A stretch of DNA of 64,000 nt. Origin: Halapricum desulfuricans (GTDB taxonomy: Archaea; Halobacteriota; Halobacteria; Halobacteriales; Haloarculaceae). The DNA lies in contig NZ_CP064791.1 in NCBI RefSeq assembly GCF_017094465.1, positions 1-64,000 on the forward strand, written 5' to 3'. A model generated the notes under the pieces. That model was given only the letters and a program-made list of their open reading frames with translations. It had not been told where the DNA came from and searched no databases. Below, one piece after another: positions 16,955 to 64,000 of the stretch (positions are counted from its first letter, which is position 1; every line of letters begins with the position of its first letter). Position numbers and translations under genes: made by a program.

Positions 16955-18421
16955 ATGTTTGCACCTGTACAATCACTCCTTGATGCGGGATTTGCCCTGT
17001 CGTTGCTCGACGGACCGGCAATACAGCTGTCGCCCGAAATCGCGAGCCGGGCGCAGTTCGGGTGGACCATCAGCGTCCACATCCTCTTTGCCGCCCTGTC
17101 GATCGGCCTCGCGCCGTTCATCGTCTATTTCACCTGGAAAGAGGTCCGAACCGACGACGAGCGGTTCACGCGGCTGCGCTCGTTTTGGGTGAAGGTGTTC
17201 GCGGCAGGCTTCGTAATGGGTACAGTCACGGGAATCCCGATGAGCTTCCAGTTCGGGACGAACTTCCCGCAGTTCTCTTCGGTGGCCGGCGAGATGATCG
17301 GCGGTCCGCTGGCCTTCGAGGCCAAGATGGCCTTCTTCCTCGAGGCCGTCTTCCTCGGCGTCCTGCTGTTCGGCCGTGATCGAGTCAGCGATCGCACATA
17401 TGTCCTTTCGTCGTTTCTGGTCGGCTTCGGTGCCTGGCTGTCTGGCTTCTGGATTCTGGTCGTCAACTCCTGGATGCAGACCCCCCAGGGCTACGAGATG
17501 GTGATGCGAAACGGGATGGAGGTCGCGAGACTGACCGACCCTATCGCCGCGTTCTTCAACCCCCGGATGACCTGGATGTACGTCCACATGATCAACGCGT
17601 CGGTGATTTCGGTCGCGCTGCTGGTCGCCGGCGTCTCCGCGTACATCGTCTGGAAGAAACGCGACGCGGACGCTTGGGGCACGGCGCTGAAGATCGCGGT
17701 GCTCATCCTGCTCGTCTCGGCACCGCTACAGGCGATCCACGGTGACGCCTACGCTCGCCACGTTGAGGATACCCAGCCCCAGAAGTTCGCGGCCATGGAG
17801 GGGCATTACGAGACGGGCACCGCTGATCTCCACCTCTTTGCAATCCCGACAGATCCTGATGCGTTCATGCGGCCGAGCGAGGAAAATCTCTTCACGATAA
17901 GCTTGCCGCGGGTCGGGTCGTTCCTCGCCAGCGGCGGTGATTTCGACGCGGTCGTGACTGGACTGGACGAATACGAACAGAACCCGCCAGTCCCGCTCGT
18001 GTTCTGGTCGTTCCGGCTCATGGTCGGGCTCGGATTCCTGTTTATCGGGCTCGCACTGTGGGGTGGCTATCTCATGTACCGTGATCGACTGACCGACAGC
18101 GATTGGTACTTGAAGGCGATGATCGCGGCGTCGCCGCTGGGGTACGCCGCCTTGCTCACGGGTTGGTATGTCACTGAGATCGGCCGCCAGCCGTGGGTGA
18201 TACAGGACGTGCTCAAGACGGACAACGCGGTCTCCCCGACGCTAACGGGGACGGAAGCGACGCTGACGCTCGTCGCTTTCCTCGTCATCTACACGGGACT
18301 GGTCCTGTCGGCGCTGTACATCCTCCGGTGGCTCATCGAGGACGAACTCCGCGACCTGGGTGTCACGGAATCGAAGGGGCACTGGTACGGTCCGCTCCCG
18401 GGGGTGAGCGACGATGACTGA
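16955..18421 (+). CDS. cydA: Cytochrome bd quinol oxidase subunit I
   Basis: Subunit I of cytochrome bd, the high-affinity quinol-oxygen oxidoreductase; 488 aa, multi-helical. Family features are RAQFGWTISVHILFAALSIG with the heme-ligand His at 42, MTWMYVHMINASVIS with a second conserved His near 212, the quinol-loop region around residues 245-320, and GRQPWVIQ near 410. The end overlaps the cydB start by eight bases, so the subunits are translationally coupled. An inverted repeat lies upstream. Cytochrome bd typically serves low oxygen or oxidative stress. Confidence 0.95.
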   Translation: MFAPVQSLLDAGFALSLLDGPAIQLSPEIASRAQFGWTISVHILFAALSIGLAPFIVYFTWKEVRTDDERFTRLRSFWVKVFAAGFVMGTVTGIPMSFQFGTNFPQFSSVAGEMIGGPLAFEAKMAFFLEAVFLGVLLFGRDRVSDRTYVLSSFLVGFGAWLSGFWILVVNSWMQTPQGYEMVMRNGMEVARLTDPIAAFFNPRMTWMYVHMINASVISVALLVAGVSAYIVWKKRDADAWGTALKIAVLILLVSAPLQAIHGDAYARHVEDTQPQKFAAMEGHYETGTADLHLFAIPTDPDAFMRPSEENLFTISLPRVGSFLASGGDFDAVVTGLDEYEQNPPVPLVFWSFRLMVGLGFLFIGLALWGGYLMYRDRLTDSDWYLKAMIAASPLGYAALLTGWYVTEIGRQPWVIQDVLKTDNAVSPTLTGTEATLTLVAFLVIYTGLVLSALYILRWLIEDELRDLGVTESKGHWYGPLPGVSDDD

Positions 18422-19412
18422 CTGGCTGCCCGTCGACTCGTATCTCGTCGAGTCGCTGCCCGAGATCTGGTTCGGTGCCGTCATGTTCGCGCTGACGATG
18501 TACATCGTCCTCGACGGGTTCGACTTCGGGATCGGGATGCTGTACGCGACCCGGGACAACGACCACGAGAGGGAGACGCTGCTGTCGGCGTTCGGACCGG
18601 TCTGGGACGCAAACGAGGTGTGGGTGATCGCCTTCGGGACGATGACGCTCGCGGCGTTCCCCGACGTCTACTCCCGGCTGCTGTCCGATCATTACTTCCT
18701 CGCGATCGGGTTCGTCCTTGCGTTGCTGTTCCGCGGGCTCGGCCCGGAACTGCGCGAACAACGCGACGACGAACAATGGAAGCGCTACTCCGATTACTCG
18801 TTCATCGGCGGGAGCCTGCTCTCCCCGCTTCTGTTCGGCATGCTCGCCGGCCGCTGGGTGTTCGACGCGGCGACGCTGTCGCTGCCGGCGCTGCTGACGG
18901 GGGTTGGCCTGGTCGCCGTCTCGGTCGTCACCGGTGCGGCGTTTCTGGCGGCCAAGACCTCGCCGACGCTGGCCGAGGACATTAGCGCCTACGGTATCAT
19001 CGCGACGCTCGCGTATCTCGGCGGCGTCGTCGTGTTGCTGGCGACCGTCGTCATAACTGACGCCGGCGGTCACGCCGGGACGATCCTCTCGGTGCCCGCA
19101 GCGGCCATCGTCGGGCTCTCGGTCGTCGCCGGACTGGGTGGCATCATCCTGGCCGGCCGCGGGGAGTACCGCGCCTGGCTGGCCAGTGCCCTGGCGCTTC
19201 CCACGCTGTTGAGTCTCCTCGTTGCCCTGCTGTTGTACCCGACGATCTACCCGCCGACCGGGCTGACGATCCAGGAGGCCGTCGTCTCCCCGCTCGCGCT
19301 CAACCTCACGACTGTCCTCGGATTCCCGGTCCTGCTGATCGTGCTGTGGTACTTCAAGTTCCTCTACGGCGTGTTCAGCGGTCCGATCGAGGGCGACGGC
19401 TACGGGGCCTGA
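18414..19412 (+). CDS. cydB: Cytochrome bd quinol oxidase subunit II
   Basis: Subunit II of cytochrome bd, 332 aa. The N-terminus has the family stretch YIVLDGFDFGIGML and FGPVWDANEVWVIAFGTM with LAAFPDVYSRLL. The 3' end is notable: the last 108 bases (19306-19413) are repeated in direct orientation at 23953-24060 with eight differences, mostly synonymous, beyond a 4.5-kb accessory island. The gene is intact and ends in YFKFLYGVFSGPIEGDGYGA. Confidence 0.95.
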   Translation: MTDWLPVDSYLVESLPEIWFGAVMFALTMYIVLDGFDFGIGMLYATRDNDHERETLLSAFGPVWDANEVWVIAFGTMTLAAFPDVYSRLLSDHYFLAIGFVLALLFRGLGPELREQRDDEQWKRYSDYSFIGGSLLSPLLFGMLAGRWVFDAATLSLPALLTGVGLVAVSVVTGAAFLAAKTSPTLAEDISAYGIIATLAYLGGVVVLLATVVITDAGGHAGTILSVPAAAIVGLSVVAGLGGIILAGRGEYRAWLASALALPTLLSLLVALLLYPTIYPPTGLTIQEAVVSPLALNLTTVLGFPVLLIVLWYFKFLYGVFSGPIEGDGYGA

Positions 19413-19413
19413 C
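19306..19413 (+). repeat. Direct repeat, left copy (3' end of cydB)
   Basis: This 108-base segment includes the last 35 codons of cydB and its stop. It matches 23953-24060 at 100 of 108 positions. The two copies bracket the accessory island, the geometry expected of integration into a gene's 3' end or of partial gene duplication. Confidence 0.9.
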
Positions 19414-19500
19414 AGTTGTGCGGCTACGCAATGGCTTCGGCGATCACGGGTGTGACGTGGCGCTCAATCACCCGCTGCGACGGTTATAGAGTTTCGAGGC

Positions 19501-19910
19501 GAAAACCCACGGCTTGAGCCGTCCTTAGAACGCTATGCGTTCTGATTGGCTGCACAAGACCTCCGGTCTTGTGAATGTGGGATGAAGCCGACAATTGGGA
19601 GAGGAACTACACTACAACAGCGGAAGACTCTCTAATATTTAAGTAGATACAAGATATATGTGAAATCAGCTCTACAGCAACCAAAACGGGGGCTGTGGAG
19701 GGGTAGTGTCAGCCGCCCTCGAACAGCGGGGACGTGTGACCGTGTGTACGTGACAGAATGATAGGAGGGACGTTCCGAACCAACTCGTTGAGGTTGGGTA
19801 CATCTGGTACTGAAGCCCACTGTGGGTGTGAGAAATCCCCTGCTCACTGTCTGCACCGCTCCACTGGGAGTCCCACGCTGAAGCCCACCCGTTTACGGGT
19901 GGGTAGCTGA
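19501..19910 (+). mobile_element. Non-autonomous IS200/IS605-type element (PATE/MITE-like)
   Basis: No transposase frame, but the ends look like IS200/IS605 termini. The left part has three hairpins: 19510-19521, 19527-19543 (7-bp stem AGAACGC/GCGTTCT) and 19554-19572 (8-bp stem). The right end has an 8-bp stem with 4-base loop at 19884-19903 (CCCACCCG/CGGGTGGG) followed by TAGCTGAC, typical of haloarchaeal tnpB-linked right ends that also encode omega-like RNA. The length of about 410 bases fits the palindrome-associated elements known in haloarchaea. Exact ends are uncertain. It sits where a peptide gene would be expected in front of the next two genes. Confidence 0.6.
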
Positions 19911-19933
19911 CGTGACGCTAATTTCAGATAAAT

Positions 19934-20179
19934 ATGATACAAACGTGGATACTAGCGGCTTCCATTGCGGCAGGTGGTGTAGTCATATTTGCGCTTGACC
20001 GCGACATTTATCGCCATGAGGGAAGTCCCGTCAGTTACCTCTTCATTTTCGCGATGGTGGGGGCAGCGTATTACTTCGGACTCAAAGGGCTGTTCGGCGC
20101 CGTTGTTCTCGGGATTATAACTAACGGAATACATGCGTTCGCTGCTCGACAACAGAGTACTGCCAAGACGGCCCCGTAA
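19934..20179 (+). CDS. Small membrane protein of SpoIIM cassette 1
   Basis: An 81-aa protein with two or three hydrophobic segments (about 3-20, 34-50 and 52-68) and a short charged loop (LDRDIYRHEGSP). It ends 20 bases before a SpoIIM gene on the same strand, the same order as in the three other cassettes, although sequence similarity between the small proteins is low. In bacterial circular bacteriocin loci small membrane proteins next to SpoIIM genes give immunity; a similar role is inferred here. The expected peptide gene upstream is missing and the transposon-like element occupies its place. Confidence 0.65.
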   Translation: MIQTWILAASIAAGGVVIFALDRDIYRHEGSPVSYLFIFAMVGAAYYFGLKGLFGAVVLGIITNGIHAFAARQQSTAKTAP

Positions 20180-20199
20180 CTTCTCCCCATCCATATACG

Positions 20200-20751
20200 A
20201 TGCAACTGATACGCCCCTCTCGTACTGTTAGGTCTCTTGTCGGAATCAACCTGGGTTTGTTCCTTGGCGGAGTATCAGCCGGATTGATCCTTGGCGTTCC
20301 TGACCAGGGAATGTCGGTATCCGACCCATCGTACTACTCTGTCGAGAGTCTAAACTTTGTTAACATCCTTTGGAACAACGCGCAGGTGACAGTATTGCTA
20401 TTTCTGACGAGCTTGACGCTGCTCTGGATTATCGGTGCATTCTTACTCGTCCTAAACGGCTACGTACTCGGCACGACGATCCTCGCCGCGCGAGCGACGG
20501 GTTGCTCTTGGCTACTCATCGCTATGACTACGCTTCCACACGGGGCTATCGAGGTATTTGCCTTCGCGCTATCGAGTGCTGTCGGGGTGGTACTGCCACT
20601 CCAAATTATCAACTATCTCCGTGGCATAAATGACCGGCTCATCTCCCGCGAGAGCAACGTGGAGACTGCGACATATCTGGCTCTCTCTTTCGTTCTTATC
20701 GTCGTCGCTGCGTGGATAGAGGCGACTGTCTCGCTCTCGATAGCGGCCTAA
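20200..20751 (+). CDS. SpoIIM/DUF95-family membrane protein (cassette 1)
   Basis: A 183-aa integral membrane protein of about five helices. It shares with the other three copies an Asn pair (N59-N60), an Asn-Gly (N86-G87) and the motif TLPHGAIE (P113, H114, E118). SpoIIM/DUF95 proteins are found in spore engulfment complexes and in circular bacteriocin clusters, where they are needed for maturation. The invariant His and Glu four residues apart could be functional residues within the membrane. The peptide partner is absent upstream, so this copy may be orphaned or act on a peptide from another cassette. Confidence 0.8.
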   Translation: MQLIRPSRTVRSLVGINLGLFLGGVSAGLILGVPDQGMSVSDPSYYSVESLNFVNILWNNAQVTVLLFLTSLTLLWIIGAFLLVLNGYVLGTTILAARATGCSWLLIAMTTLPHGAIEVFAFALSSAVGVVLPLQIINYLRGINDRLISRESNVETATYLALSFVLIVVAAWIEATVSLSIAA

Positions 20752-20839
20752 AATGAATTCAAGACAATGCGGGTTCAGAGGCCTATTGACGGTAGTGTTT
20801 CTGTCGGACTATTAGCCGATCGTATTACAGCGATGGAAG

Positions 20840-20990
20840 TCAGATTGGCGTCCGCTTCGTCTGTCGACGTCGAACGATGATCGCCGTACAGGCGACGGCC
20901 ACGGCGGCGAGCGTGATCGAGAGCGACTCAAGGTTGGCCCACACCGCGTAGGTCCCGATGTTGCGACGAACTCGCCACGGTAGAGTTAAT
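20840..20990 (-). pseudogene. Possible decayed 3' end of a membrane protein gene
   Basis: On the minus strand an open frame without a start codon reads into NIGTYAVWANLES, then a hydrophobic stretch (ITLAAVAVACTAIIV) and the basic end RRRQTKR, stopping at 20840-20842. It looks like the C-terminal membrane anchor of a lost gene downstream of the regulator. The rest of the 264-base gap (20752-21015) shows no gene. Support is only compositional. Confidence 0.25.
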
Positions 20991-21015
20991 CAGCCGGGTA
21001 TCGCTGTGGGACCAG

Positions 21016-21867
21016 TCAGTCCTGCCCGTGGGCAATCGACATCCCTCGATTGTCCGTCTCCACGATGGAAGACGCGCGAGTTCGAAGCGAGTCGATCCGT
21101 TTGCTCGCCCACTTCTGGACCGTCTCGTCGGTCGTCTCGACCAGGACGTGGGGCTTGTCGTGCTCGTCGAGTCCCAGAATAACCACTCGGTCGTCGATTC
21201 GCGCGACGCCGTAGTCAATCTTCGCACCTGCCAGGACGCCAATATCGAGAGGTCCGCGCTGAACGAGGTTCTTCAGTTTGGTCTTATGTTCGGCCTGTAA
21301 TGTGTCTGCGATGTCTTCGGGAACGTACAGAGAGATGTCGCTGTCCGCTGCCTGGAATATCGGGGCATCCGTCCGATTAAACAGGAGCGGATTTGTCGGA
21401 ATATACCCACTCACATTTGTCGCGTCCTCGATTAGTGCTGTTAACCGTTGGTGAGGAGCATACGGCTTGGCACGTGTTACCTCCGTAACAGTCACTGCCG
21501 AGAGGCTCCGAATGTCGAAGTCGAATTCTGACGGCGGTACACACGAAAACAGCGGCTCCAACTCGAGGGCCGTTTCGACGTGATCGCTGAACGCGGTGAG
21601 GGCGTCCAAGACAACCCTCCCAAGCGGTGTAGACCGAAACTCGTTGTCGATCGTCTCCTCGATTAGGTTCGCCTCGATCATCTCCTGGAGATTGTGACGG
21701 ACTGTCGTCCGTGGTGACTCCAGACAATCAGAAAGGTCCCGGAGGTCGAGTGTCCCATCAGTGAGTATCGATAAGATCTCGATCCTGACTGGCGTTCTTG
21801 CGACGTGATTGAGTAATTCTTGAACCCGTGGAGACACCCGTTTCCCCTCACCATTTTGTGAACACAT
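21016..21867 (-). CDS. HTH transcriptional regulator, FilR1/DUF1724-type
   Basis: A 283-aa regulator typical of euryarchaea. The N-terminal winged helix (about 12-85) includes TPVRIEILSILTDG and SPRTTVRHNLQEMIEANLIE. The C-terminal domain matches the FilR1/DUF1724 type: PSEFDFDIRSLSAVTVTEVT, a central DAPIFQAADSDISLYVP and IDYGVARIDDRVVILGLDE. It is the last gene of a minus-strand run peptide, small membrane protein, SpoIIM, regulator, starting 25 bases after the SpoIIM gene. It may control peptide production, perhaps by autoregulation; the ligand is unknown. Confidence 0.85.
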   Translation of the reverse strand: MCSQNGEGKRVSPRVQELLNHVARTPVRIEILSILTDGTLDLRDLSDCLESPRTTVRHNLQEMIEANLIEETIDNEFRSTPLGRVVLDALTAFSDHVETALELEPLFSCVPPSEFDFDIRSLSAVTVTEVTRAKPYAPHQRLTALIEDATNVSGYIPTNPLLFNRTDAPIFQAADSDISLYVPEDIADTLQAEHKTKLKNLVQRGPLDIGVLAGAKIDYGVARIDDRVVILGLDEHDKPHVLVETTDETVQKWASKRIDSLRTRASSIVETDNRGMSIAHGQD

Positions 21868-21892
21868 ACGAGTCGTTAAATTCTGACCACTT

Positions 21893-22483
21893 TCATATAC
21901 TTAAAACCGCCCCTTGTGCTCTCAGTCTAGCGATCTGTGCGGTGATTTGACTCTCGACGGCGGCTGCAATGACAACCAGGCTGAACGCGACAATGAGAAG
22001 GACTGCCATCTGGACGATATCGCGCTGACAGAGGGGAGTATCACGCCGTTTCAGCAAATACGCACCTAGACCAACTGGCACTTTCAGACCAACGCACCCG
22101 GCCATCCAGAACGCTGGGAGTTCAAACACGGCGTGTGGAAGTGTCAACGCGAAGAATGTACCTAGCTCCCCGGTGCCGGCAGCAGTCCCTGCAAGCAATC
22201 CGATCACGAGCCCGTTCTGAAACAAGACGATAAGCGTCGGAATCCCGATCAGAAGTCCTCCGAGTGCCAGCACTGTCAGGACGCTCGTATTTGTGACGAG
22301 AAGGTGCCCCAGTTGAAGCTGCTGGGTGGTCTGCTGTATCGATGCTGTCTCCGGACCCCCTTTCGCTGTGCCGGTGAGTACGAGAGCGACGCCGGTGATA
22401 GCTCCAAGTGTGGTCGTACCGATTGAAAGAACGAGCGGTTTCGCGTTGTTCGCGAGCGATCGTCGTGGGGACAAGGGAAACAT
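21893..22483 (-). CDS. SpoIIM/DUF95-family membrane protein (cassette 2)
   Basis: A 196-aa polytopic membrane protein. It keeps the cassette-wide signature: Asn65 of the Asn-Asn position (here Thr-Asn), N90-G91 and TLPHAVFE with P116, H117 and E121. Its ATG follows the TAG of the small membrane protein gene with no gap, showing coupled translation. The basic N-terminus should face the cytoplasm. By analogy with SpoIIM/DUF95 proteins of circular bacteriocin loci it is proposed to process or export the peptide encoded at 22803-23141. Confidence 0.82.
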   Translation of the reverse strand: MFPLSPRRSLANNAKPLVLSIGTTTLGAITGVALVLTGTAKGGPETASIQQTTQQLQLGHLLVTNTSVLTVLALGGLLIGIPTLIVLFQNGLVIGLLAGTAAGTGELGTFFALTLPHAVFELPAFWMAGCVGLKVPVGLGAYLLKRRDTPLCQRDIVQMAVLLIVAFSLVVIAAAVESQITAQIARLRAQGAVLSI

Positions 22484-22777
22484 CTACACTGACGACGATC
22501 TGAACCGCTCAATCGACACGAGGACGAGGTAGAGCGCGACGAAACCGAGGCATACTGCCAGCACGCTGTATCTAAACCACCACGGCTCTGACCCCCACGC
22601 GAGGAATGCCGCCGCACCCATTGTCAAGCTGAGCCCAACTGCAAGTAGTGTCTGGATCCCCCCAGCGACTGCAGTGTCCTCAGTGACCTCGCTGACCATT
22701 CGCCGGAACGGGAAGAACGTGCCCAGCCAGACGAGCAACCCGATTCCGACTTGGGTGGAAAGTCCTTGTAGTGACAT
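22484..22777 (-). CDS. Small three-helix membrane protein (cassette 2)
   Basis: A 97-aa protein with three hydrophobic segments (about 8-24, 40-60 and 70-88) and a loop FFPFRRMVSEVTEDTA. The ATG at 22777 lies 25 bases after the peptide gene stop; the longer open frame overlaps the peptide gene and is not coding-like. The stop abuts the SpoIIM start. Its position between precursor and SpoIIM matches immunity or accessory proteins of bacterial circular bacteriocin loci, but no sequence homology to those is claimed. Confidence 0.72.
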   Translation of the reverse strand: MSLQGLSTQVGIGLLVWLGTFFPFRRMVSEVTEDTAVAGGIQTLLAVGLSLTMGAAAFLAWGSEPWWFRYSVLAVCLGFVALYLVLVSIERFRSSSV

Positions 22778-22802
22778 TCGCTTTTTATCCACGTTAGTCC
22801 AT

Positions 22803-23141
22803 TTACGCCGCAAGTAGACCGCCGGTTGCGGCTGCACCGGCACCAAATGTTGCAGCTGTGCCTGTAGCGGATACGTAAGTTGCTGCACCGCTCGCAGCAG
22901 TCCCGGATCCACTGATGACCGCTGATCCCCCAGCTAAGGTGCTGTCGGCGTCGAGATCATCATTCAACGCCTTGTACGCGAGGTAGCTGGCACCGAGATC
23001 GCCGGTGCTTGAACTGGTGGCCACCACTGTGCCGACTCCGGCAGTGAGGAGACTGAGCGCGAGCACAACGGCGACTGCGGCGGTGATGGGACTATTCGAC
23101 TCGTTCGCGGTTGCGGTCTGTAACGTAACGTTCTCGGTCAT
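22803..23141 (-). CDS. Ala/Gly-rich hydrophobic peptide precursor, archaeocin candidate (cassette 2)
   Basis: A 112-aa protein. A polar N-terminus of about 18 residues precedes a hydrophobic helix (TAAVAVVLALSLLTAG), then a polar stretch ending SYLAYKALNDD, and finally about 45 residues made almost only of Ala, Gly, Ser, Thr and Val, ending GLLAA. Charge in the C-terminal half is nearly nil, extreme for a haloarchaeal protein. It heads the minus-strand operon; TATA-like sequences occur at 23177-23198. Size, composition and the SpoIIM partner resemble circular bacteriocin precursors. The processing site cannot be told from sequence. Confidence 0.7.
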   Translation of the reverse strand: MTENVTLQTATANESNSPITAAVAVVLALSLLTAGVGTVVATSSSTGDLGASYLAYKALNDDLDADSTLAGGSAVISGSGTAASGAATYVSATGTAATFGAGAAATGGLLAA

Positions 23142-23318
23142 CGTTTCGACCCACGAGTAGCATAGGTTCGATATGTCTATTAATTCGCCGATTTAAATTC
23201 TGATTACTGTGTCGTTGCCCGACGACCGATTCAAACTAGACAATCCGGTCGTCAACCGACGATTCTATCGTTAGAGTCCAGGGAGTGAATTGATCACCCT
23301 TTCGTTAGAACCGTCTCT
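23142..23318. promoter_or_regulatory. Divergent promoter region, cassette 2
   Basis: AT-rich gap between the minus-strand peptide operon and the plus-strand Yip1 gene. TATA-like ATTTAAATTC is at 23191-23200 and TCTATTAATT at 23176-23185, 40-54 bases upstream of the peptide start when read on the minus strand. Confidence 0.4.
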
Positions 23319-23939
23319 ATGCTCAGTGTCATCAGGGATCCGGCGCTGTTCTATCAGGAACAAGCAACCGATCGGTTGAGTGGCCCCATTTTGACCGTTC
23401 TCATCGCGGCAGTCACGAACGTACTTGCTACTGTGATCCTGCTGGCTTCCTCGTGGTCGACTATCGCCGAAGCCAGTACATATGTTACCACCGCATACGT
23501 GCTCAGCATTTTCTTTGGTATTGGCAGCGTCGTGGGATCGTGGGTACTGTATTCGGCAGCGTTTCACGCTGTCTCGGCGGTGTTCGGCGGCGAGGGAAGC
23601 TTTCGGCGGACTCTAACGTACACCGGTTGGGGGTTCGTCCCAATCGCCGTTAGTGGCCTCATCCACGCCGGCCTGATATTCCTGCGCGTTCGTGAGGCCA
23701 TATTTCCCGACTCAGCACAACAACTCGGGCCGTTCGTCCAGCAATTAACAAGTGGGCCGCTATTCACAATGGCGTCGCTTCTCGGCATCGTATTCACGAT
23801 CTGGAGCGGTGTAATATGGACGTTCGCGATGCGTGATGCGCGCGCTCTTTCGCTTCGGTATGCTGCGGCAACCGTTGCGCTCCCGCTCGGCATCTGGATC
23901 ACCTGGCGGTTGTATTCTGTCCTTTCACCGCTGCTCTAA
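23319..23939 (+). CDS. Yip1-family membrane protein (cassette 2)
   Basis: A 206-aa protein with a short N-terminal amphipathic part (RDPALFYQEQ) and five membrane helices, matching the Yip1 fold. It shares with the other cassette-linked Yip1 proteins a GWGFVP motif near residue 108 and a C-terminal SGVIWTFAMRDAR. Yip1 proteins shape membranes or assist transport in eukaryotes; in archaea their role is unknown. It is transcribed away from the peptide operon. The 14 bases after its stop lead into the right copy of the cydB repeat. Confidence 0.75.
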   Translation: MLSVIRDPALFYQEQATDRLSGPILTVLIAAVTNVLATVILLASSWSTIAEASTYVTTAYVLSIFFGIGSVVGSWVLYSAAFHAVSAVFGGEGSFRRTLTYTGWGFVPIAVSGLIHAGLIFLRVREAIFPDSAQQLGPFVQQLTSGPLFTMASLLGIVFTIWSGVIWTFAMRDARALSLRYAAATVALPLGIWITWRLYSVLSPLL

Positions 23940-23952
23940 CCGAGAGGGGACT

Positions 23953-24060
23953 TCACGACTGTCCTCGGGTTCCCGGTCCTGCTGATCGTGCTGTGGTACT
24001 TCAAGTTCCTCTATGGCGTGTTTAGCGACCCGATCGAGGGTGAGGGTTACGGGGCCTGAC
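23953..24060 (+). repeat. Direct repeat, right copy (remnant cydB 3' end)
   Basis: Matches 19306-19413 at 100 of 108 positions and still translates in frame to the last residues of CydB with a stop (…FSDPIEGEGYGA). Most differences are silent codon changes, so this copy evolved under coding constraint, probably as the end of another cydB allele. No upstream part of cydB is attached. It marks the right edge of the island. Confidence 0.88.
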
Positions 24061-45097: not shown

Positions 45098-45973
45098 GTG
45101 AATCTCGGGATCGGGTATGCCGTCGCGTCGGCGCTACTGCTTGGCGGGTATCTCTACGTCATCAAGCGATACTTCTCGCAGTATCCCTCGCCGGTGTACC
45201 TCGTGCTCGTCGAAGGGGCGGCGTTCGTCTGGTATCTGCCGGTCGCGGCGTTTACCGTCGATGGTGGCTATCTCCCGGCCGGCGCTGACCTGTGGCTGTT
45301 CACCGTTATCTTCGGAGTCTCAGCGATGACCGGGCTGGCCCTGCTGTCGTTTCTGGCAGCGCTCCGGCGCGGTGCGGTCTCGTACGTCGCTCCGATCAGC
45401 AAGATCGTTCCCGTGTTCGTCTTGCCGCTGGAGATTCTCCTGCTCGGCCAACACCTGACACCGCTGCAACTCGGCGGCGTCCTCGTCGCGACGGCCGCCG
45501 TCTACGTCGCCAACTACCAACCCGGAGAGCTACTCGAACCGTTCCGGCGGGCCGCGACGACGACCGCCGCTCAGCTGGCGCTGGCCAGTGCCGCCGCGTT
45601 CGGCGTCGTCGACGTGGGCAAGCGCTACCTGATGCAGGAACTCGCGCTCCCGCCCCAGACGTTTCTCCCGGTGATGTTTTTCATCGTCACGCTGTTCGTC
45701 GCGCCGCTTGCGGCTCGTGCGTCCTGGCCGGCCGAAACCCGGCGCGACCTCCCGAAGTTCGCCGCTGCGGGCCTGCTTGTCGCCGTCGCCAACCACCTCG
45801 TGTTGCTCGCGTTCCAGCTGCTACCCGCGAGCATCGGCTCGCCGATTGTCAACACCCAGGCCGTCGTGGCTGTCCTGCTCGGCGGCGTCCTTTTGCAGGA
45901 GGAGGCGTTTCGTATCCGGCTGGTCGCCGCCGGGCTGGCCGTCGCCGGCATCACCATGATCACGCTGGGATAA
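45098..45973 (+). CDS. EamA/DMT-superfamily transporter
   Basis: A 291-aa, ten-helix drug/metabolite transporter built from two EamA repeats (about 5-135 and 145-290). The first repeat ends LLGQHLTPLQLGGVLVATAAVYVAN, the second GVLLQEEAFRIRLVAAGLAVAG. GTG at 45098. Substrate unknown. It is the last gene before the second low-GC block. Confidence 0.85.
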   Translation: MNLGIGYAVASALLLGGYLYVIKRYFSQYPSPVYLVLVEGAAFVWYLPVAAFTVDGGYLPAGADLWLFTVIFGVSAMTGLALLSFLAALRRGAVSYVAPISKIVPVFVLPLEILLLGQHLTPLQLGGVLVATAAVYVANYQPGELLEPFRRAATTTAAQLALASAAAFGVVDVGKRYLMQELALPPQTFLPVMFFIVTLFVAPLAARASWPAETRRDLPKFAAAGLLVAVANHLVLLAFQLLPASIGSPIVNTQAVVAVLLGGVLLQEEAFRIRLVAAGLAVAGITMITLG

Positions 45974-46086
45974 ACTACCCCGGCCTCTTCGCTCATGGCT
46001 TCTTCTCGCGGGCTGGAGGGCCGCTCAAATGGCTGTGGGATTCGTTCTGTGCTTATCCCCGTTCACTTCATTAGGGGTTCCGTCAG

Positions 46087-46366
46087 ATGGGGCCTGACAA
46101 CGGGCTGTTCGGGAAGACGGTCCGGCCGGAGTACTACCAGTCCGGCGAACGGACGCAGGAAGCTTGAACAGACACGGTTTCAAAAAAAGCGCGACAACCT
46201 GGACGACGGATACACAATCCTGACCATCGATCAGACGCGTCAGATCCTCTCGATGCTGATCTATGCGTGTGTTCAAGAAGGGGACCGCCCGCCACTGCTG
46301 GTGACAGGCGCGTGGGACAGTATCAAACTGCTCGGTACAGTCAGCGATTCCGGCGAAACGTGCTGT
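46087..46366 (+). pseudogene. Broken IS630-type transposase fragment
   Basis: Two frames carry one decayed gene. The first (46087-46167) reads DNGLFGKTVRPEYYQSGERT; after a frameshift near 46160 a second frame continues QTRFQKKRDNLDDGYTILT, then IDQTRQILSM and VTGAWDSIKLLGTVSDSGET. The latter fits the DDE catalytic domain of haloarchaeal IS630-family transposases (first Asp in the IDQT position). The match ends where the Yip1 gene begins on the other strand (46367). No start, N-terminus or terminal repeats remain. The rest of the 45974-46366 gap shows nothing. Confidence 0.5.
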
Positions 46367-46993
46367 TTATGTCGACTGCATCACGATCCAGATAATACCG
46401 AACACAACCGGGGGTGCGGCAGACACTGCGGCCTCTCGAATTGATATCTTCCGGGCGTGCTTGATCCCGAACGTCCAGAGTACCCCCATCCAAATCAGGG
46501 ACATACTTCGTATTATTGCGATGAAGACGGTAATGACACCTTGCTGGGCTCTAACTACGGATTGGGCCATCGTTTCGGGTCTTTCTGGGATCACAACTCC
46601 CTGGAGTGAAACAAGTATCAGCAAACTTGACAGTAAACCCGCGATAATCGCAGGGATAAATCCCCAGCTAATGTACTTCATCGCTTTCCGAAGTGTCCCT
46701 TTGCCATCGAAGAGGAGGCCTGACACAGCCACGATGGCACATGTGGTAATGAACCAAATCACAAATGTGCCAAAGATTCCGGAGATCGCCCCTAAGACCG
46801 TCCCAAACATCACTGCCAACTTCAGCACCCCCGGTTGGAATGTATTCCATACCAAATATATAAGGTAAAATATTGGTATCGTATTTGTCACGGCAACTAT
46901 GACAATTATCTTTACCGAACTTCCCATCGTTGGTTCGCCTAACTTTTCAAAGAAGTCGTTCGGATCTATGAATAATTCGGGATTTATCTGCAT
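46367..46993 (-). CDS. Yip1-family membrane protein (cassette 3)
   Basis: A 208-aa protein with IDPNDFFEKLG near the N-terminus, five helices, YISWGFIPAIIAGL in the centre and MGVLWTFGIKHAR near the end: the same three landmarks as the other cassette-linked Yip1 proteins. Here it is on the same strand as the peptide operon and follows SpoIIM by 52 bases, so it may be the fourth gene of one transcript. Codon use is AT-rich compared with the flanking genes. Confidence 0.75.
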   Translation of the reverse strand: MQINPELFIDPNDFFEKLGEPTMGSSVKIIVIVAVTNTIPIFYLIYLVWNTFQPGVLKLAVMFGTVLGAISGIFGTFVIWFITTCAIVAVSGLLFDGKGTLRKAMKYISWGFIPAIIAGLLSSLLILVSLQGVVIPERPETMAQSVVRAQQGVITVFIAIIRSMSLIWMGVLWTFGIKHARKISIREAAVSAAPPVVFGIIWIVMQST

Positions 46994-47045
46994 TTTTGAT
47001 ATTAGTTGGATCTATTTCGTAGTCACTCTACTGAGTCTATAATTC

Positions 47046-47606
47046 TCAAATACTTCTTACAATGGCGGGAGTGGCAATCACTTCAATAACTGCCCCAATC
47101 AAGATTAAAACCAGAGCAGTCGCTGTCAGTACGCCAGCATCTCTTATGTCGCTGTATTCGATTGTAACAGTCTGCTCTCTTCTGAGGTATCTTATTATAT
47201 CTAGTGGGAATTTTAGACCTGCTGCTGAAGCAATTATAAAACCAGCAATTTCGAACATTCCGTGAGGGACGATCCACATCACTGATGTGAGCAACGTAGT
47301 CCCTTTTGTCGATCCAAGGATAGATACTCCTATAATGAATCCGTTGATGTACAGAAGTCCAATTGTTGCGAACCCTAAGAACGCTATACCACCGACTACT
47401 AGCACAATGACTATTACAGCGTTATTAAACAAGATGGATGTGAGAGTAAACTCGGTCAAATGAGAATACTTAGTCTCTGGAACCCCTTCAGTTCCAGAAC
47501 TTACGATGCTAATCCCTGTAAGTATCCCAAGTCCCAATGCCACTCCAGAGACTAGTAGTCTGTATTTAGCGCACACAAGAAGTCTCCAAACCGTTGATAA
47601 AATCAT
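47046..47606 (-). CDS. SpoIIM/DUF95-family membrane protein (cassette 3)
   Basis: A 186-aa membrane protein of about five helices. Signature residues are N61-N62, N88-G89 and IVPHGMFE (P114, H115, E119), at the same spacing as in the other copies. Very AT-rich for this genome and therefore probably acquired. It follows a 62-aa membrane protein and the peptide gene on the same strand. Confidence 0.82.
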   Translation of the reverse strand: MILSTVWRLLVCAKYRLLVSGVALGLGILTGISIVSSGTEGVPETKYSHLTEFTLTSILFNNAVIVIVLVVGGIAFLGFATIGLLYINGFIIGVSILGSTKGTTLLTSVMWIVPHGMFEIAGFIIASAAGLKFPLDIIRYLRREQTVTIEYSDIRDAGVLTATALVLILIGAVIEVIATPAIVRSI

Positions 47607-47630
47607 ACTTATATTTAGTATGATAGATTG

Positions 47631-47819
47631 CTATTTTCCCTCTGAAAAGTACAGTATCATTGCGGAGATAAATAGCAACAGCAGTGGTAACAGATATGCA
47701 ATTTGCGGAACATTCTCTCGAGTGAGAGTGAGTACTCCGACTGCTACCATTGCTAATCCGACGATGGCAGCTGCGGCGAACGACCCATCTATTGCTATCT
47801 TTGAGGCATTCAGATTCAT
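47631..47819 (-). CDS. Small two-helix membrane protein (cassette 3)
   Basis: A 62-aa protein with two hydrophobic segments (about 12-31 and 39-58) separated by TRENVPQ, ending with a short charged tail. It sits between the peptide and SpoIIM genes, 33 bases after the former and 24 before the latter, the position of the putative immunity or accessory protein in the other cassettes. Confidence 0.68.
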   Translation of the reverse strand: MNLNASKIAIDGSFAAAAIVGLAMVAVGVLTLTRENVPQIAYLLPLLLLFISAMILYFSEGK

Positions 47820-47852
47820 TATTATCGATGGATGGAGTGATGAATTTCTTAT

Positions 47853-48146
47853 TTACATCGCGCCGACGCCACTGACGACCATCGCACCACCGACGACACC
47901 TGCACCGACCAGACCAAGTTTACCGAGACCGCCGGCAGCCGTACTGAATCCAGCGAGGCCTCCCATAGCGACGCCCGCTGATCCAGCACTAATAGAACCG
48001 TAGGCGTAGGCAGCGGCGACACCACCCGCAAGGCCACCGGCCGATGAGACGAGGAGCGTCGTTAGGCCAAAGGCAACAACCGCTCCCAACGCGATGCTGT
48101 CAGTTCCAATCGAGACACTCTCTTTCACTCTCTTTCGGAATTTCAT
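47853..48146 (-). CDS. Gly/Ala-rich hydrophobic peptide precursor, archaeocin candidate (cassette 3)
   Basis: A 97-aa protein. A basic N-terminus (MKFRKRVKES) precedes about 80 residues made almost wholly of Gly, Ala, Val, Ser and Leu (for example GGLAGGVAAAYAYGSISAGS) with a single Lys (GLGKLG) and the end SGVGAM. Without the leader-like basic part the core is 60-75 residues, the length of circular bacteriocins. It heads a minus-strand operon. A TATA-like TATATTTAAAT is at 48197-48207. Confidence 0.72.
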   Translation of the reverse strand: MKFRKRVKESVSIGTDSIALGAVVAFGLTTLLVSSAGGLAGGVAAAYAYGSISAGSAGVAMGGLAGFSTAAGGLGKLGLVGAGVVGGAMVVSGVGAM

Positions 48147-48571
48147 CTCAGAGAAAACTAGTATAACGAAGACATATGTATCTGGTGTTTCAGTACTATA
48201 TTTAAATAAAGAATAATCATTTCTCCTACTCTGTTGATAGAGTCCGAGTTATAGTTAGAGTAGTTAATAAAGCAATATATTACTTGTATCGAATATCAAG
48301 CCGATTTCACGGCACTGTCGATACCAGTCCAGTGCTCGTTCGGTAATGTCGAGCGCTTCGTTGTCGACCACGAAGCCTCAGACATCCGGCGTTGAGGCCA
48401 CTCCGCCTATGAGTTATTAGTCGAGATACCTTCTTCGGTCGAATCCTCGTTTCAGTTCCAGAAGTTTCGTTGATCACTGTGGTCTCTCTCGACCTGAGGT
48501 CGGAGGCTTCGCCTCGAAACTGCCGCTCCGGACCGGCAAGCCTTACTACCACGGGGAGATATCAATCGATA
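48147..48571. other. AT-rich intergenic region with promoter and gene debris
   Basis: A 425-base gap. The left third is very AT-rich and contains the promoter of the cassette 3 peptide gene. From about 48285 to 48400 the minus strand has an open frame reading VVDNEALDITERALDWYRQC, then REIGLIFDTS and a stop, probably a fragment of a lost gene (transposase debris is possible but not recognisable). GC rises to the genomic level from 48420. No RNA gene is seen. Confidence 0.45.
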
Positions 48572-61652: not shown

Positions 61653-62270
61653 CTACACGAGATGAGTGAGTTCCCAAACGACCGATGCGAGCGTCGGGAT
61701 GGCGGCGACCAGCGCGCTCCGTCGCAGGCCCACGTCCGTCGCGTGTTTCAGGGCAAACGCCCAGAGGAAGCCGCGCCAGCAGATGAAACCGACGCTGACG
61801 ACTCGTATGACCTGGATGGCTGGATGCTGGTTCATTGCCTTTATCTGGGCACGGAGCGCGCCGGATGTCACCGCCTCGGGCACGGTGAAGACGGCGTAGA
61901 TGGCGAGGAAGCTCGCGACGCCCGCAAACGCAAGCGGGAGGAAGCCGAATCCGGTGAGGAAGAAAATCGTGCGGAACTCGCTGTCGCTGCCGAGCCGCCG
62001 AGTGAGCGTGAAAAAGAGGATACTGAAGAGGATCCAGATTACGAAAATCGTGAGTGCAGACGTGAACACGCCGAATGCGCCGCCGATCGCGTAAAACACG
62101 GTGAGTGGGCCGTCAGTGCCCGATATGAGTTGGAGGAATACGTATGCGGGGCCGAGGACCGTCGCGAACGCGGTGGCCAACACGACGAGCGTCGCCCGCC
62201 GCATTTCGAGCTCGTTCGCCTGTCGTTCGAAGAAGGTATCGGGATCACGGAGGAGGTGCGTCACCCACAT
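61653..62270 (-). CDS. Yip1-family membrane protein (cassette 4)
   Basis: A 205-aa protein with LLRDPDTFFERQ at the N-terminus, five helices, LTGFGFLPLAFAGV centrally and RGFLWAFALKHAT near the end. ATG at 62270 follows a TATA-like TTTATATT on the minus strand centred at 62296, 26 bases upstream, consistent with a leaderless transcript. It is divergent from the peptide operon, as in cassette 2. Confidence 0.76.
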   Translation of the reverse strand: MWVTHLLRDPDTFFERQANELEMRRATLVVLATAFATVLGPAYVFLQLISGTDGPLTVFYAIGGAFGVFTSALTIFVIWILFSILFFTLTRRLGSDSEFRTIFFLTGFGFLPLAFAGVASFLAIYAVFTVPEAVTSGALRAQIKAMNQHPAIQVIRVVSVGFICWRGFLWAFALKHATDVGLRRSALVAAIPTLASVVWELTHLV

Positions 62271-62279
62271 ATAATGCAA

Positions 62280-62366
62280 TTCTCTCTAAGCAATATAAAA
62301 TAATTCTGATTTTGAGGATATAGTCAGATTTAACTAATAGTACTATATATAGTTTAGTGTAGCAGT
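62280..62366. promoter_or_regulatory. Divergent promoter region, cassette 4
   Basis: An AT-rich 87-base gap. TATA-like TAAAATAATT lies near 62296 for the Yip1 gene, and ATTTAACTAATAG (62328-62340) and CTATATATAG (62343-62352) precede the peptide gene. Spacing suggests very short or no 5' leaders. Confidence 0.42.
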
Positions 62367-62645
62367 ATGACAAAGACTACTACCGAGTACGACAACCGTA
62401 CCGTCCTCACGGCATTTGCCGTTGGAACCACGCTGTTGGCGCTCTTCGCGACTGCCACGCCTATGAGCGCCGGCGCGTACCTCATCTACCAGGGGAGCAC
62501 CGCTAGCGGTGCTGCTGCTGCCGGTGGCGGCCTTGCGTCTATCGGTGGCGCAGTTACCGCCTACGGGACGGCGGGATCCGTTAGCACGACTGCCGCTATC
62601 GGATTGGGTATGACCGGCGCCGGCGGCGCCGTGGCCCTCGCGTAA
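62367..62645 (+). CDS. Ala/Gly-rich hydrophobic peptide precursor, archaeocin candidate (cassette 4)
   Basis: A 92-aa protein. A polar start (MTKTTTEYDNRT) precedes a hydrophobic stretch VLTAFAVGTTLLALFATA, then a 58-residue core from about AGAYLIYQGS with only Ala, Gly, Ser, Thr, Leu, Ile, Val, Tyr, Gln and Met, ending GGAVALA. The core has no charged residue. AGAYLIYQ resembles GASYLAYK of cassette 2. It heads the plus-strand operon peptide, membrane protein, SpoIIM. Core length, composition and neighbours match the circular bacteriocin pattern. The cleavage site is unknown. Confidence 0.74.
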   Translation: MTKTTTEYDNRTVLTAFAVGTTLLALFATATPMSAGAYLIYQGSTASGAAAAGGGLASIGGAVTAYGTAGSVSTTAAIGLGMTGAGGAVALA

Positions 62646-62711
62646 CCGCCTGCTTTCGCGTCCCGAGCCGTCGGGGCGTCGAACCACTACCAACTCGATT
62701 TACATACACGT

Positions 62712-62957
62712 ATGCTCTCAAAACTCGTCGTTGCCTGTGCCGGAGCGCTCCCCCTGGTTGTGTTTTTCTCCGGGGTCTACGAAGAACCAACGCAGCGCAT
62801 CGCAATTGTAACTGCGAACGTCGGCTTGCTTGTCGGCGTCTTTGTCGCCTATACGAGCGAGGCGGGCGTGCCGTTGCCGTTACGCGTCGCGCTCTACAGC
62901 ATCGTGGTGCTGTCGCTCGTGTACCATCTCGGGGCCGCCGTCGCGTTGCGGCGATGA
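62712..62957 (+). CDS. Small three-helix membrane protein (cassette 4)
   Basis: An 81-aa protein with three hydrophobic segments (about 4-20, 30-47 and 56-76), a loop GVYEEPTQR and a basic end (Arg-Arg). It overlaps the SpoIIM gene by four bases (ATGA), a translational coupling also typical of immunity/SpoIIM pairs. Membership of the cassette is by position; function unknown. Confidence 0.72.
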   Translation: MLSKLVVACAGALPLVVFFSGVYEEPTQRIAIVTANVGLLVGVFVAYTSEAGVPLPLRVALYSIVVLSLVYHLGAAVALRR

Positions 62958-63544
62958 GTCACCGTGTCCGGTCGGCGCTCGCTGCACACCGCGACGAATT
63001 GGTCGCAGCGACGGCGGTCTACGCGGGGACGTTCCTGCTCGGGTTCGTGGCGTACGTCGCGTTCGGGACGCGAGTCGATGTCGCGGGCTACGAGTCGTCG
63101 GTCGCGTCGGCGTCCGCGGCTGCGGGTGTGGGACAGTTCACGTTCCTGCACATACTTGGGAACAACGCAGTCGTCGTCGGCGTGTCCGCGGCTGGCGGTC
63201 TCGCGCTCGGTGTTCCGACGCTCGTAAACACGCTTTTCAATGGCTTCGTAATGGGCGTGCTTGGGGGCGTCGTCGCCACCGCGGCGTCACCGGACGTGGC
63301 GCTCGCGGCGGTGTTGCCTCACGTCATCGTCGAGGTTCCGGCGTTCCTGCTGGCTGCTGCAGCGGGGTTCAAGCTCCCGCGGGCACTCGGCTCGTACCTA
63401 GTTGGGAACACCGAGTACATACTTGACCGGCGGACGGTGCGAGACTCGGCTGTGGTCGCGGTGACTGCCGTCGCGCTCGTGGTCGTCGCCGCCGTGGTGG
63501 AGGTCGTCATCACTCCCTGGGTGGTCAATCTCGTCGTGTCCTGA
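62954..63544 (+). CDS. SpoIIM/DUF95-family membrane protein (cassette 4)
   Basis: A 196-aa membrane protein of about five helices. Signature residues: N70-N71, N96-G97 and VLPHVIVE (P122, H123, E127). The GC content is closer to the genome than in cassettes 2 and 3. It ends the plus-strand three-gene operon. A 134-base gap follows before the next Yip1-type gene. Confidence 0.83.
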   Translation: MSHRVRSALAAHRDELVAATAVYAGTFLLGFVAYVAFGTRVDVAGYESSVASASAAAGVGQFTFLHILGNNAVVVGVSAAGGLALGVPTLVNTLFNGFVMGVLGGVVATAASPDVALAAVLPHVIVEVPAFLLAAAAGFKLPRALGSYLVGNTEYILDRRTVRDSAVVAVTAVALVVVAAVVEVVITPWVVNLVVS

Positions 63545-63678
63545 CACCCGAACCCGGACCGTCGTGGACTAACACTTCACTACTGTTTTTGAAGTCTGAA
63601 CGCCCACCAACAGGCTTCTTTGCGACCACGCGCAAACGCGGGGTGGCGCTAGTACTCTTCGAGTGGTCAGCGGCCATT

Positions 63679-64000
63679 TCAAACGATGTTCCAGAGTGAC
63701 CAACTAATTGAGACAGCTACTGGGCCAGCGACGGTGATAATTGCTTCTCTGGAGGACAGGCCGCGAATACTCTTTACCGCGTAGAACCAGAGGAATCCCT
63801 GCCACACCGCGAAGGGCACTCCAAGGACGTTGGCGAGTACCAGCCAGGGGTTACTTTCTGTCGCCTGAATCGCTTGGGTAAGACCTTCTCCAACTGGTCG
63901 TAGTGGGACTTGCGAGAATACGTAGATCGCTGATACGGAACCGATGAAGGCGCCAATACCCGATGGGATGAATCCCCAGCCAATGGCTGCCAAAAGGTCA
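63679..64000 (-). CDS. Yip1-family membrane protein, 5' end beyond window
   Basis: The C-terminal half (about 107 residues visible) of a further Yip1-like protein, running off the right edge: AAIGWGFIPSGIGAFI and QGFLWFYAVKSIRGLSSRE match the landmarks of the other three. It suggests another cassette starts beyond 64000. The reading frame remains open at the window edge, so the apparent first Met near 63993 is not the true start. Confidence 0.72.
   Translation of the reverse strand, partial: DLLAAIGWGFIPSGIGAFIGSVSAIYVFSQVPLRPVGEGLTQAIQATESNPWLVLANVLGVPFAVWQGFLWFYAVKSIRGLSSREAIITVAGPVAVSISWSLWNIV

What the first reader, a model, noticed from the sequence alone, without database searches (positions are those of the whole stretch)
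19306..24060. Accessory island bracketed by a 108-bp duplication of the cydB 3' end
The last 108 bases of cydB recur with eight changes right of the island, still reading as CydB's C-terminus. This is the geometry of site-specific integration into a gene's 3' end (the gene being restored by the incoming copy) or of recombination between two cydB alleles. Protein-gene 3' ends are unusual attachment sites, and no integrase is present.
Basis: partly seen in the sequence, partly recalled or inferred. Interest (0 to 1): 0.78.

Follow-up and report, generated by a model that had tools for sequence, protein, structure and literature searches.

The report
Peptide-cluster island behind duplicated cydB end
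A salt-loving archaeon has acquired a 4.5-kb foreign stretch right behind an oxidase gene whose tail is repeated at the far side, and that stretch carries a gene set resembling those with which bacteria make ring-shaped antimicrobial peptides.

Summary
The repeat is real: 19306-19413 recurs at 23953-24060, 100/108 identical, both reading as the CydB C-terminus to the stop codon. Five congeners carry one copy and no island. Seven of eight differences are third-codon changes (P 0.003-0.03), so both copies were probably functional cydB ends until joined; this favours exchange between two cydB alleles over an old tandem duplication. The island has foreign composition, no integrase, and no cydB empty site was found, so integration by one crossover in the gene's 3' end remains an inference. 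Such targets are not unusual in archaea (PMC6563490).

The cargo is the more interesting part: a cassette of Yip1 protein, small secreted Gly/Ala-rich peptide, small membrane protein and SpoIIM (DUF95), with a regulator, plus an orphan SpoIIM pair. The cassette recurs at 46-48 kb (clean empty site in two congeners) and at 61.6-65.6 kb. In the best-matching archaeal loci (probably Archaeoglobaceae) the peptides have a conserved leader and a variable core. The set resembles circular-bacteriocin clusters (precursor, SpoIIM, often Yip1) but lacks their ABC transporter, and no peptide matches a known bacteriocin family. Function is untested.

The parts
18414..19412 (+). cydB, intact (cytochrome bd oxidase subunit II)
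   Evidence: Pfam PF02322, E 3.9e-64
19306..19413 (+). copy A of the 108-bp cydB 3' end, part of the intact gene
23953..24060 (+). copy B, stub of a cydB 3' end, 100/108 identical to A
19414..23949 (.). acquired island, 55.3% G+C, absent from five congeners
19482..19915 (+). non-coding relic of a TnpB-only (IS200/IS605, IS1341-type) element; boundaries approximate
   Evidence: left part matches a spacer between tnpB genes in a congener; hairpins z -4.8 and -2.3
19934..20179 (+). small hydrophobic protein of the orphan pair
   Evidence: open frame and position; no Pfam family above cut-off
20200..20751 (+). SpoIIM (DUF95) of the orphan pair, no peptide gene upstream
   Evidence: PF01944, E 1.8e-20; profile; no peptide-like frame
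21016..21867 (-). winged-helix regulator, HVO_A0261/FilR1-like
   Evidence: PF25213, PF08350; relative in the homologous cassette
21893..22483 (-). SpoIIM (DUF95) of the complete cassette
   Evidence: PF01944, E 6.2e-23
22484..22777 (-). small membrane protein (start at the internal ATG, inferred)
   Evidence: 48% identical counterpart in L059
22803..23141 (-). precursor-like peptide, 112 aa, Gly/Ala-rich tail
   Evidence: 70% identical relative in QS_1_68_17; no Pfam family
23319..23939 (+). Yip1 protein of the cassette
   Evidence: PF04893, E 2e-18
45973..48524 (.). second insertion, exactly at the stop codon of an EamA-like gene; empty site in G001 and G005
46367..46993 (-). Yip1 protein of the second cassette
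   Evidence: PF04893, E 7.1e-17
47046..47606 (-). SpoIIM of the second cassette
   Evidence: PF01944, E 4.9e-21
47631..47819 (-). small membrane protein of the second cassette
   Evidence: open frame and position
47853..48146 (-). peptide of the second cassette, 97 aa
   Evidence: 53% Gly+Ala in last 55 residues
61653..62279 (-). Yip1 protein of the third cassette
   Evidence: PF04893, E 1.1e-13
62367..62645 (+). peptide of the third cassette, 92 aa
62712..62957 (+). small membrane protein of the third cassette
62954..63544 (+). SpoIIM of the third cassette
   Evidence: PF01944, E 8.7e-25
63679..64000 (-). 3' part of the Yip1-like gene of a fourth cassette that runs past the window end (to contig position about 65604)
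   Evidence: L072; family by similarity of layout, not scanned

Best explanation
19414-23949 is a horizontally acquired island joined to cydB by recombination between two closely related, then functional, cydB 3' ends. Most likely a circular molecule carrying the island plus 108 bp of a cydB 3' end from a close relative entered by one crossover in the resident gene's 3' end; the intact gene keeps a working tail (copy A) and the displaced resident tail became the stub (copy B). Shown: the repeat, the allele-like pattern of differences, the foreign composition, absence from congeners. Inferred: the circle, the crossover and its direction. The cargo is a secreted-peptide cassette: the peptide is made as leader plus Gly/Ala-rich core, SpoIIM and the small membrane protein help process or export it and/or protect the producer, Yip1 assists at the membrane, and the regulator controls the genes. 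By analogy with circular bacteriocin clusters I expect a membrane-active antimicrobial peptide. The cargo functions are inferred from gene neighbourhood and sequence character only.
For: Repeat with 7 of 8 differences at third codon positions; five congeners with one cydB end and no island; island composition. Cassette conserved in another genus away from cydB and at two other places in this genome, one with a clean empty site in two congeners. Peptide gene upstream of SpoIIM in 18 of 21 best outside loci and 0 of 5 stand-alone SpoIIM loci; leader 60% and core 26% mean identity. Precursor, SpoIIM and often Yip1 occur together in circular bacteriocin clusters (PMC8659200).
Against: No integrase, no circle, no attP-like copy elsewhere; no empty site for cydB. 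No ABC transporter in the island; no match to a bacteriocin family; peptide structure not predictable (pLDDT 41). With 8 differences the allele argument is only moderately strong (P 0.003 to 0.03). The peptide filter was set after seeing the sequences.
Confidence: 0.5

Rival explanations
1. Linear allele replacement: a donor fragment cydAB-island replaced the resident cydAB by homologous recombination on the left, and its right end was joined by microhomology inside the resident cydB, leaving the resident's last 36 codons as a stub.
For: Predicts the same two-allele pattern; needs no integrase or circle; left neighbour of cydA is conserved in congeners while the right side varies.
Against: Needs an untidy join at the right border; identity of cydB to congeners (84-87%) does not set it apart from the rest of the genome.
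Confidence: 0.27
2. In-place duplication of the cydB end within this lineage, with the island inserted or grown between the two copies later.
For: A and B are each other's closest relatives and share an Ile codon that the relatives aligned lack.
Against: A useless fragment should not gather mainly third-position changes (P 0.003-0.03); no relative has the duplicate without the island.
Confidence: 0.15
3. For the cargo: the cassette is a membrane-remodelling or vesicle complex, and the small Gly/Ala-rich proteins are structural parts, not secreted toxins.
For: This is the published prediction for SpoIIM-Yip1 cassettes of Archaeoglobi, Methanococci and Thermococci (PMC5898192); PMC4158269 prefers a membrane-associated defence system.
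Against: Conserved leader with a variable core, tandem multi-copy cassettes and patchy occurrence fit a diversifying secreted peptide better than a structural part.
Confidence: 0.3

Closest known systems
arCOG01996 (DUF95/SpoIIM) - arCOG02054 (Yip1) - arCOG09673 cassettes of archaeal 'dark matter islands' (PMC4158269, PMC5898192)
   Same: SpoIIM, Yip1 and a small diverged membrane protein together, in islands, several per genome; the best outside SpoIIM matches lie in a family that is probably Archaeoglobaceae
   Different: Found here in Halobacteria, which the 2015 paper does not list for the cassette; with a leader-plus-core peptide gene and an HVO_A0261-like regulator. arCOG membership itself was not tested
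Head-to-tail cyclized (circular) bacteriocin clusters (PMC8659200)
   Same: Small precursor with leader and hydrophobic Gly/Ala-rich core, SpoIIM, small hydrophobic protein, Yip1 common
   Different: No ABC transporter gene; no sequence match to any bacteriocin family; cyclization unknown; archaeal host
[quoted passage not shown]
   Same: Insertion at a gene's 3' end with the reading frame kept and a direct repeat at the other border
   Different: No integrase or casposase; repeat of 108 bp is longer than the reported archaeal att sites (29-69 bp in crenarchaea, mostly short in thaumarchaea)
TnpB-only IS200/IS605-type (IS1341) elements and their non-coding derivatives
   Same: 19482-19915 carries the hairpin-rich end found next to tnpB genes in a congener; a 14-nt piece of that end recurs at the right edge of the second cassette
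   Different: No tnpB left; such elements make no target duplication, so they do not explain the 108-bp repeat

Membership tests
Circular bacteriocin gene cluster | SpoIIM (DUF95) membrane protein | tested here: met
   PF01944 in every cassette scanned
Circular bacteriocin gene cluster | precursor peptide with leader and hydrophobic core | tested here: inconclusive
   Layout and composition fit, leader conserved and core variable in outside loci, but no bacteriocin family match
Circular bacteriocin gene cluster | at least one transporter protein in the cluster | tested here: not met
   No ABC ATPase or permease among the island's genes; therefore not filed as a member
Circular bacteriocin gene cluster | head-to-tail cyclized, antimicrobial product | not testable with these tools
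   needs mass spectrometry and an inhibition assay
arCOG01996-Yip1 cassette | SpoIIM of the cassette subfamily with Yip1 and a small diverged membrane protein | tested here: met
   Pfam hits; best outside matches are cassette loci of the same layout
arCOG01996-Yip1 cassette | assignment to the arCOGs themselves | not tested
   arCOG profiles not available here
Site-specific integrated element | direct repeat at both borders, target gene restored | tested here: met
   108-bp repeat, cydB intact
Site-specific integrated element | integrase or other recombinase | tested here: not met
   none in the island
Site-specific integrated element | empty site in relatives, or repeated use of the same site | tested here: inconclusive
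   Congeners are island-free but differ in downstream neighbours; class genomes show no clear second case; G425 contig ends unresolved

The most novel reading that the evidence does not exclude
Archaea (Halobacteria, probably Archaeoglobaceae, a methanogen plasmid) share a previously unrecognised class of ribosomally made peptides, with a conserved leader and a rapidly varying Gly/Ala-rich core, matured and secreted by a SpoIIM-Yip1-small membrane protein machine without a dedicated ABC transporter: an archaeal counterpart of circular bacteriocins that spreads as small islands landing at the 3' ends of protein genes.
Probability: 0.3. Interest if true: 0.82.

Novelty: new variant of a known kind. 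Interest (0 to 1): 0.58.

Why it matters
SpoIIM/DUF95-Yip1 cassettes are among the commoner unexplained membrane gene sets in archaeal islands. Recognising a leader-plus-core peptide as their regular partner ties them to the circular bacteriocin machinery, whose maturation enzyme is itself unknown, and turns 'membrane remodelling or defence' into a direct test: is the peptide secreted, is it cyclized, does it kill cassette-free strains? The duplicated cydB end adds a small case of allele exchange at a gene's 3' end without a recombinase.

Tried and rejected
Rfam families (none) and tRNA genes (none) as integration targets: rejected. The 108-bp tail as attP in viral contigs, phages or plasmids: none; plasmid hits look like tails of ordinary cydB genes. 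G425, two contigs that both start inside cydB about 100 bp before its stop: first read as a second duplication, but both begin at contig ends, share 20 bp before differing, and the rest of cydB is absent from the assembly, so probably an assembly break. AlphaFold of the peptide: pLDDT 41, unusable, no fold search made. Flank duplications at the other two cassette sites: none. cydB next to the right-flank genes in any relative: none. Viral copies of the cassette: the peptide gave none and one SpoIIM hit looks bacterial, without cassette genes. Chance as the origin of the repeat: rejected by length, frame and identity. Makarova et al. 2019 (mBio) on archaeal antimicrobial peptides is not held, so prior mention of this peptide family cannot be excluded. 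A first attempt at the leader/core split by pattern matching failed and was redone on alignment columns.

Full report
OBSERVATION. A 108-bp stretch, 19306-19413, is the 3' end of an intact cydB and recurs at 23953-24060 with 8 differences. Both copies read as the CydB C-terminus to the stop. Identity ends one base after the stop codon on the right and just beyond the Yip1 gene's stop on the left of copy B. A whole-genome search finds only these two full-length places.

ISLAND. The DNA between the copies is 55.3% G+C against 64.9% in the rest of the window, and its dinucleotide distance (120) lies far outside 34 control stretches (mean 41, maximum 69). The genome belongs to a family that includes Haloarcula (a contig of family member G036 and Haloarcula taiwanensis record CP019157.1 both have 100,322 bases and both carry cydB at the same place). 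Five genomes of its genus have a single cydB and no island. In each of them a different sequence follows cydB, and the genes to the right of the island are not next to cydB in any relative examined. So there is no clean empty site for this insertion.

HOW THE REPEAT AROSE. Copies A and B are each other's closest relatives: both have ATC (Ile) where the relatives aligned have other codons. They nevertheless differ at 8 of 108 positions, 7 of them third codon positions; only two amino acids change. If changes fell uniformly this has P = 0.0026; weighting by where G+C lies gives P = 0.026. Both copies therefore probably diverged as working gene ends, in two strains, before being brought together. 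This speaks against an old tandem duplication decaying in place. Two histories fit: one crossover between the resident cydB and a circle carrying the island plus a cydB tail, or replacement of cydAB by a donor fragment with an untidy right end. I prefer the first because it makes both borders of the repeat in one step, but no integrase, circle or attP has been seen.

LEFT EDGE. 19482-19915 is a non-coding relic of a TnpB-only IS200/IS605-type element: its left part matches, at 84%, the spacer between two tnpB genes in a congener, and it is strongly hairpin-forming (z = -4.8). Such elements leave no target duplication (general knowledge) and do not explain the repeat. A 14-nt piece of this end, AGTTTCGAGGCGAA, recurs at the right edge of the second cassette.

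CARGO. The island holds a complete cassette (precursor-like peptide 22803-23141, small membrane protein, SpoIIM, regulator, and divergent Yip1) and an orphan pair (small hydrophobic protein and SpoIIM, 19934-20751) with no peptide gene. The complete cassette recurs, with 61-70% identity for SpoIIM, peptide and Yip1, only in MAG Halobacteriales archaeon QS_1_68_17, without cydB nearby. Searching with the SpoIIM profile revealed three further cassettes in the same genome: 46367-48146, 61653-63544, and a tandem partner at contig 63680-65604. The first of these is a clean insertion exactly at the stop codon of an EamA-like gene; congeners G001 and G005 show the empty site with no lost or duplicated base. 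So the genome carries five cassette-type SpoIIM genes within 46 kb; with the stricter SpoIIM profile none was found in the four congeners searched.

PEPTIDES. Four of the five SpoIIM genes have upstream a gene for a 92-112-aa protein with a hydrophobic N-terminal stretch, then an Ala/Tyr-containing motif and a Gly/Ala-rich tail (49-55% Gly+Ala in the last 55 residues). Outside Halobacteria the best SpoIIM matches are multi-copy genes in family f15 of the phylum; the contig lengths 2,196,266, 1,770,093, 1,901,943 and 2,076,931 are, from memory, those of Ferroglobus placidus, Geoglobus ahangari, Archaeoglobus veneficus and A. sulfaticallidus, a lead rather than a test. Of 21 best-scoring outside loci, 18 have such a peptide gene upstream (17 by the automatic filter, L094), against 0 of 5 stand-alone haloarchaeal SpoIIM loci; the filter was set after looking at the sequences. 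Fifteen of these peptides have a leader like MYAVKNWNEEVIKWLAVGMVLAMVGMAVMP with 60% mean pairwise identity, followed by cores with 26% (the border was chosen by me). A Methanomethylovorans hollandica plasmid has the same layout with two nearly identical 66-aa hydrophobic peptides and ABC permeases.

WHAT IT WORKS LIKE. In bacteria, precursor plus SpoIIM plus transporter defines circular bacteriocin clusters, and Yip1 is a common extra (PMC8659200). Archaeal SpoIIM-Yip1 cassettes were described as unexplained 'dark matter' parts of predicted defence, secretion or membrane-remodelling systems in Archaeoglobi, Methanococci and Thermococci (PMC4158269, PMC5898192). I read the present cassettes as the haloarchaeal form of the latter and as working like the former. 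They are not filed as circular bacteriocin clusters, because the transporter is missing and no peptide matches a bacteriocin family. Structure prediction of the peptide failed (pLDDT 41).

VERDICT. The larger interest lies in the cargo: a repeated leader-plus-core peptide cassette in archaea whose antimicrobial role is plausible and directly testable.

Noticed in passing
window 45973-48524: Second SpoIIM-Yip1-peptide cassette inserted exactly at the stop codon of an EamA-like gene, 47.8% G+C; G001 and G005 have the empty site with no duplicated base.
   Followed up: yes
window 61653-64000, continuing to contig position 65604 (L072 3654-7604): Two tandem cassettes between a transcription-factor-S-like gene and an FKBP-like gene; in congeners other genes follow the first of these.
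   Followed up: partly
window 19934-20751: Orphan small hydrophobic protein plus SpoIIM without a peptide gene; could be an immunity-only remnant.
   Followed up: no
L075 1152-4312 (Methanomethylovorans hollandica plasmid pMETHO01): Yip1, regulator, two nearly identical 66-aa hydrophobic peptides, SpoIIM and ABC permeases: the same layout on a methanogen plasmid.
   Followed up: partly
L108 4090-4193 and L109 1-104 (G425): Two contigs of one draft genome both begin at the same cydB base as the window's repeat and differ from each other; the rest of cydB is missing from the assembly. Probably an assembly break, but the coincidence of the border is unexplained.
   Followed up: partly
downstream of cydB in L012-L016: Five congeners have five different sequences right after cydB, so its 3' side is a frequent rearrangement point in this genus.
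   Followed up: partly
window 48508-48521 and 19490-19503: The same 14-nt piece of a TnpB-type element end (AGTTTCGAGGCGAA) lies at an edge of both acquired stretches; a link to their mobility is possible but untested.
   Followed up: no
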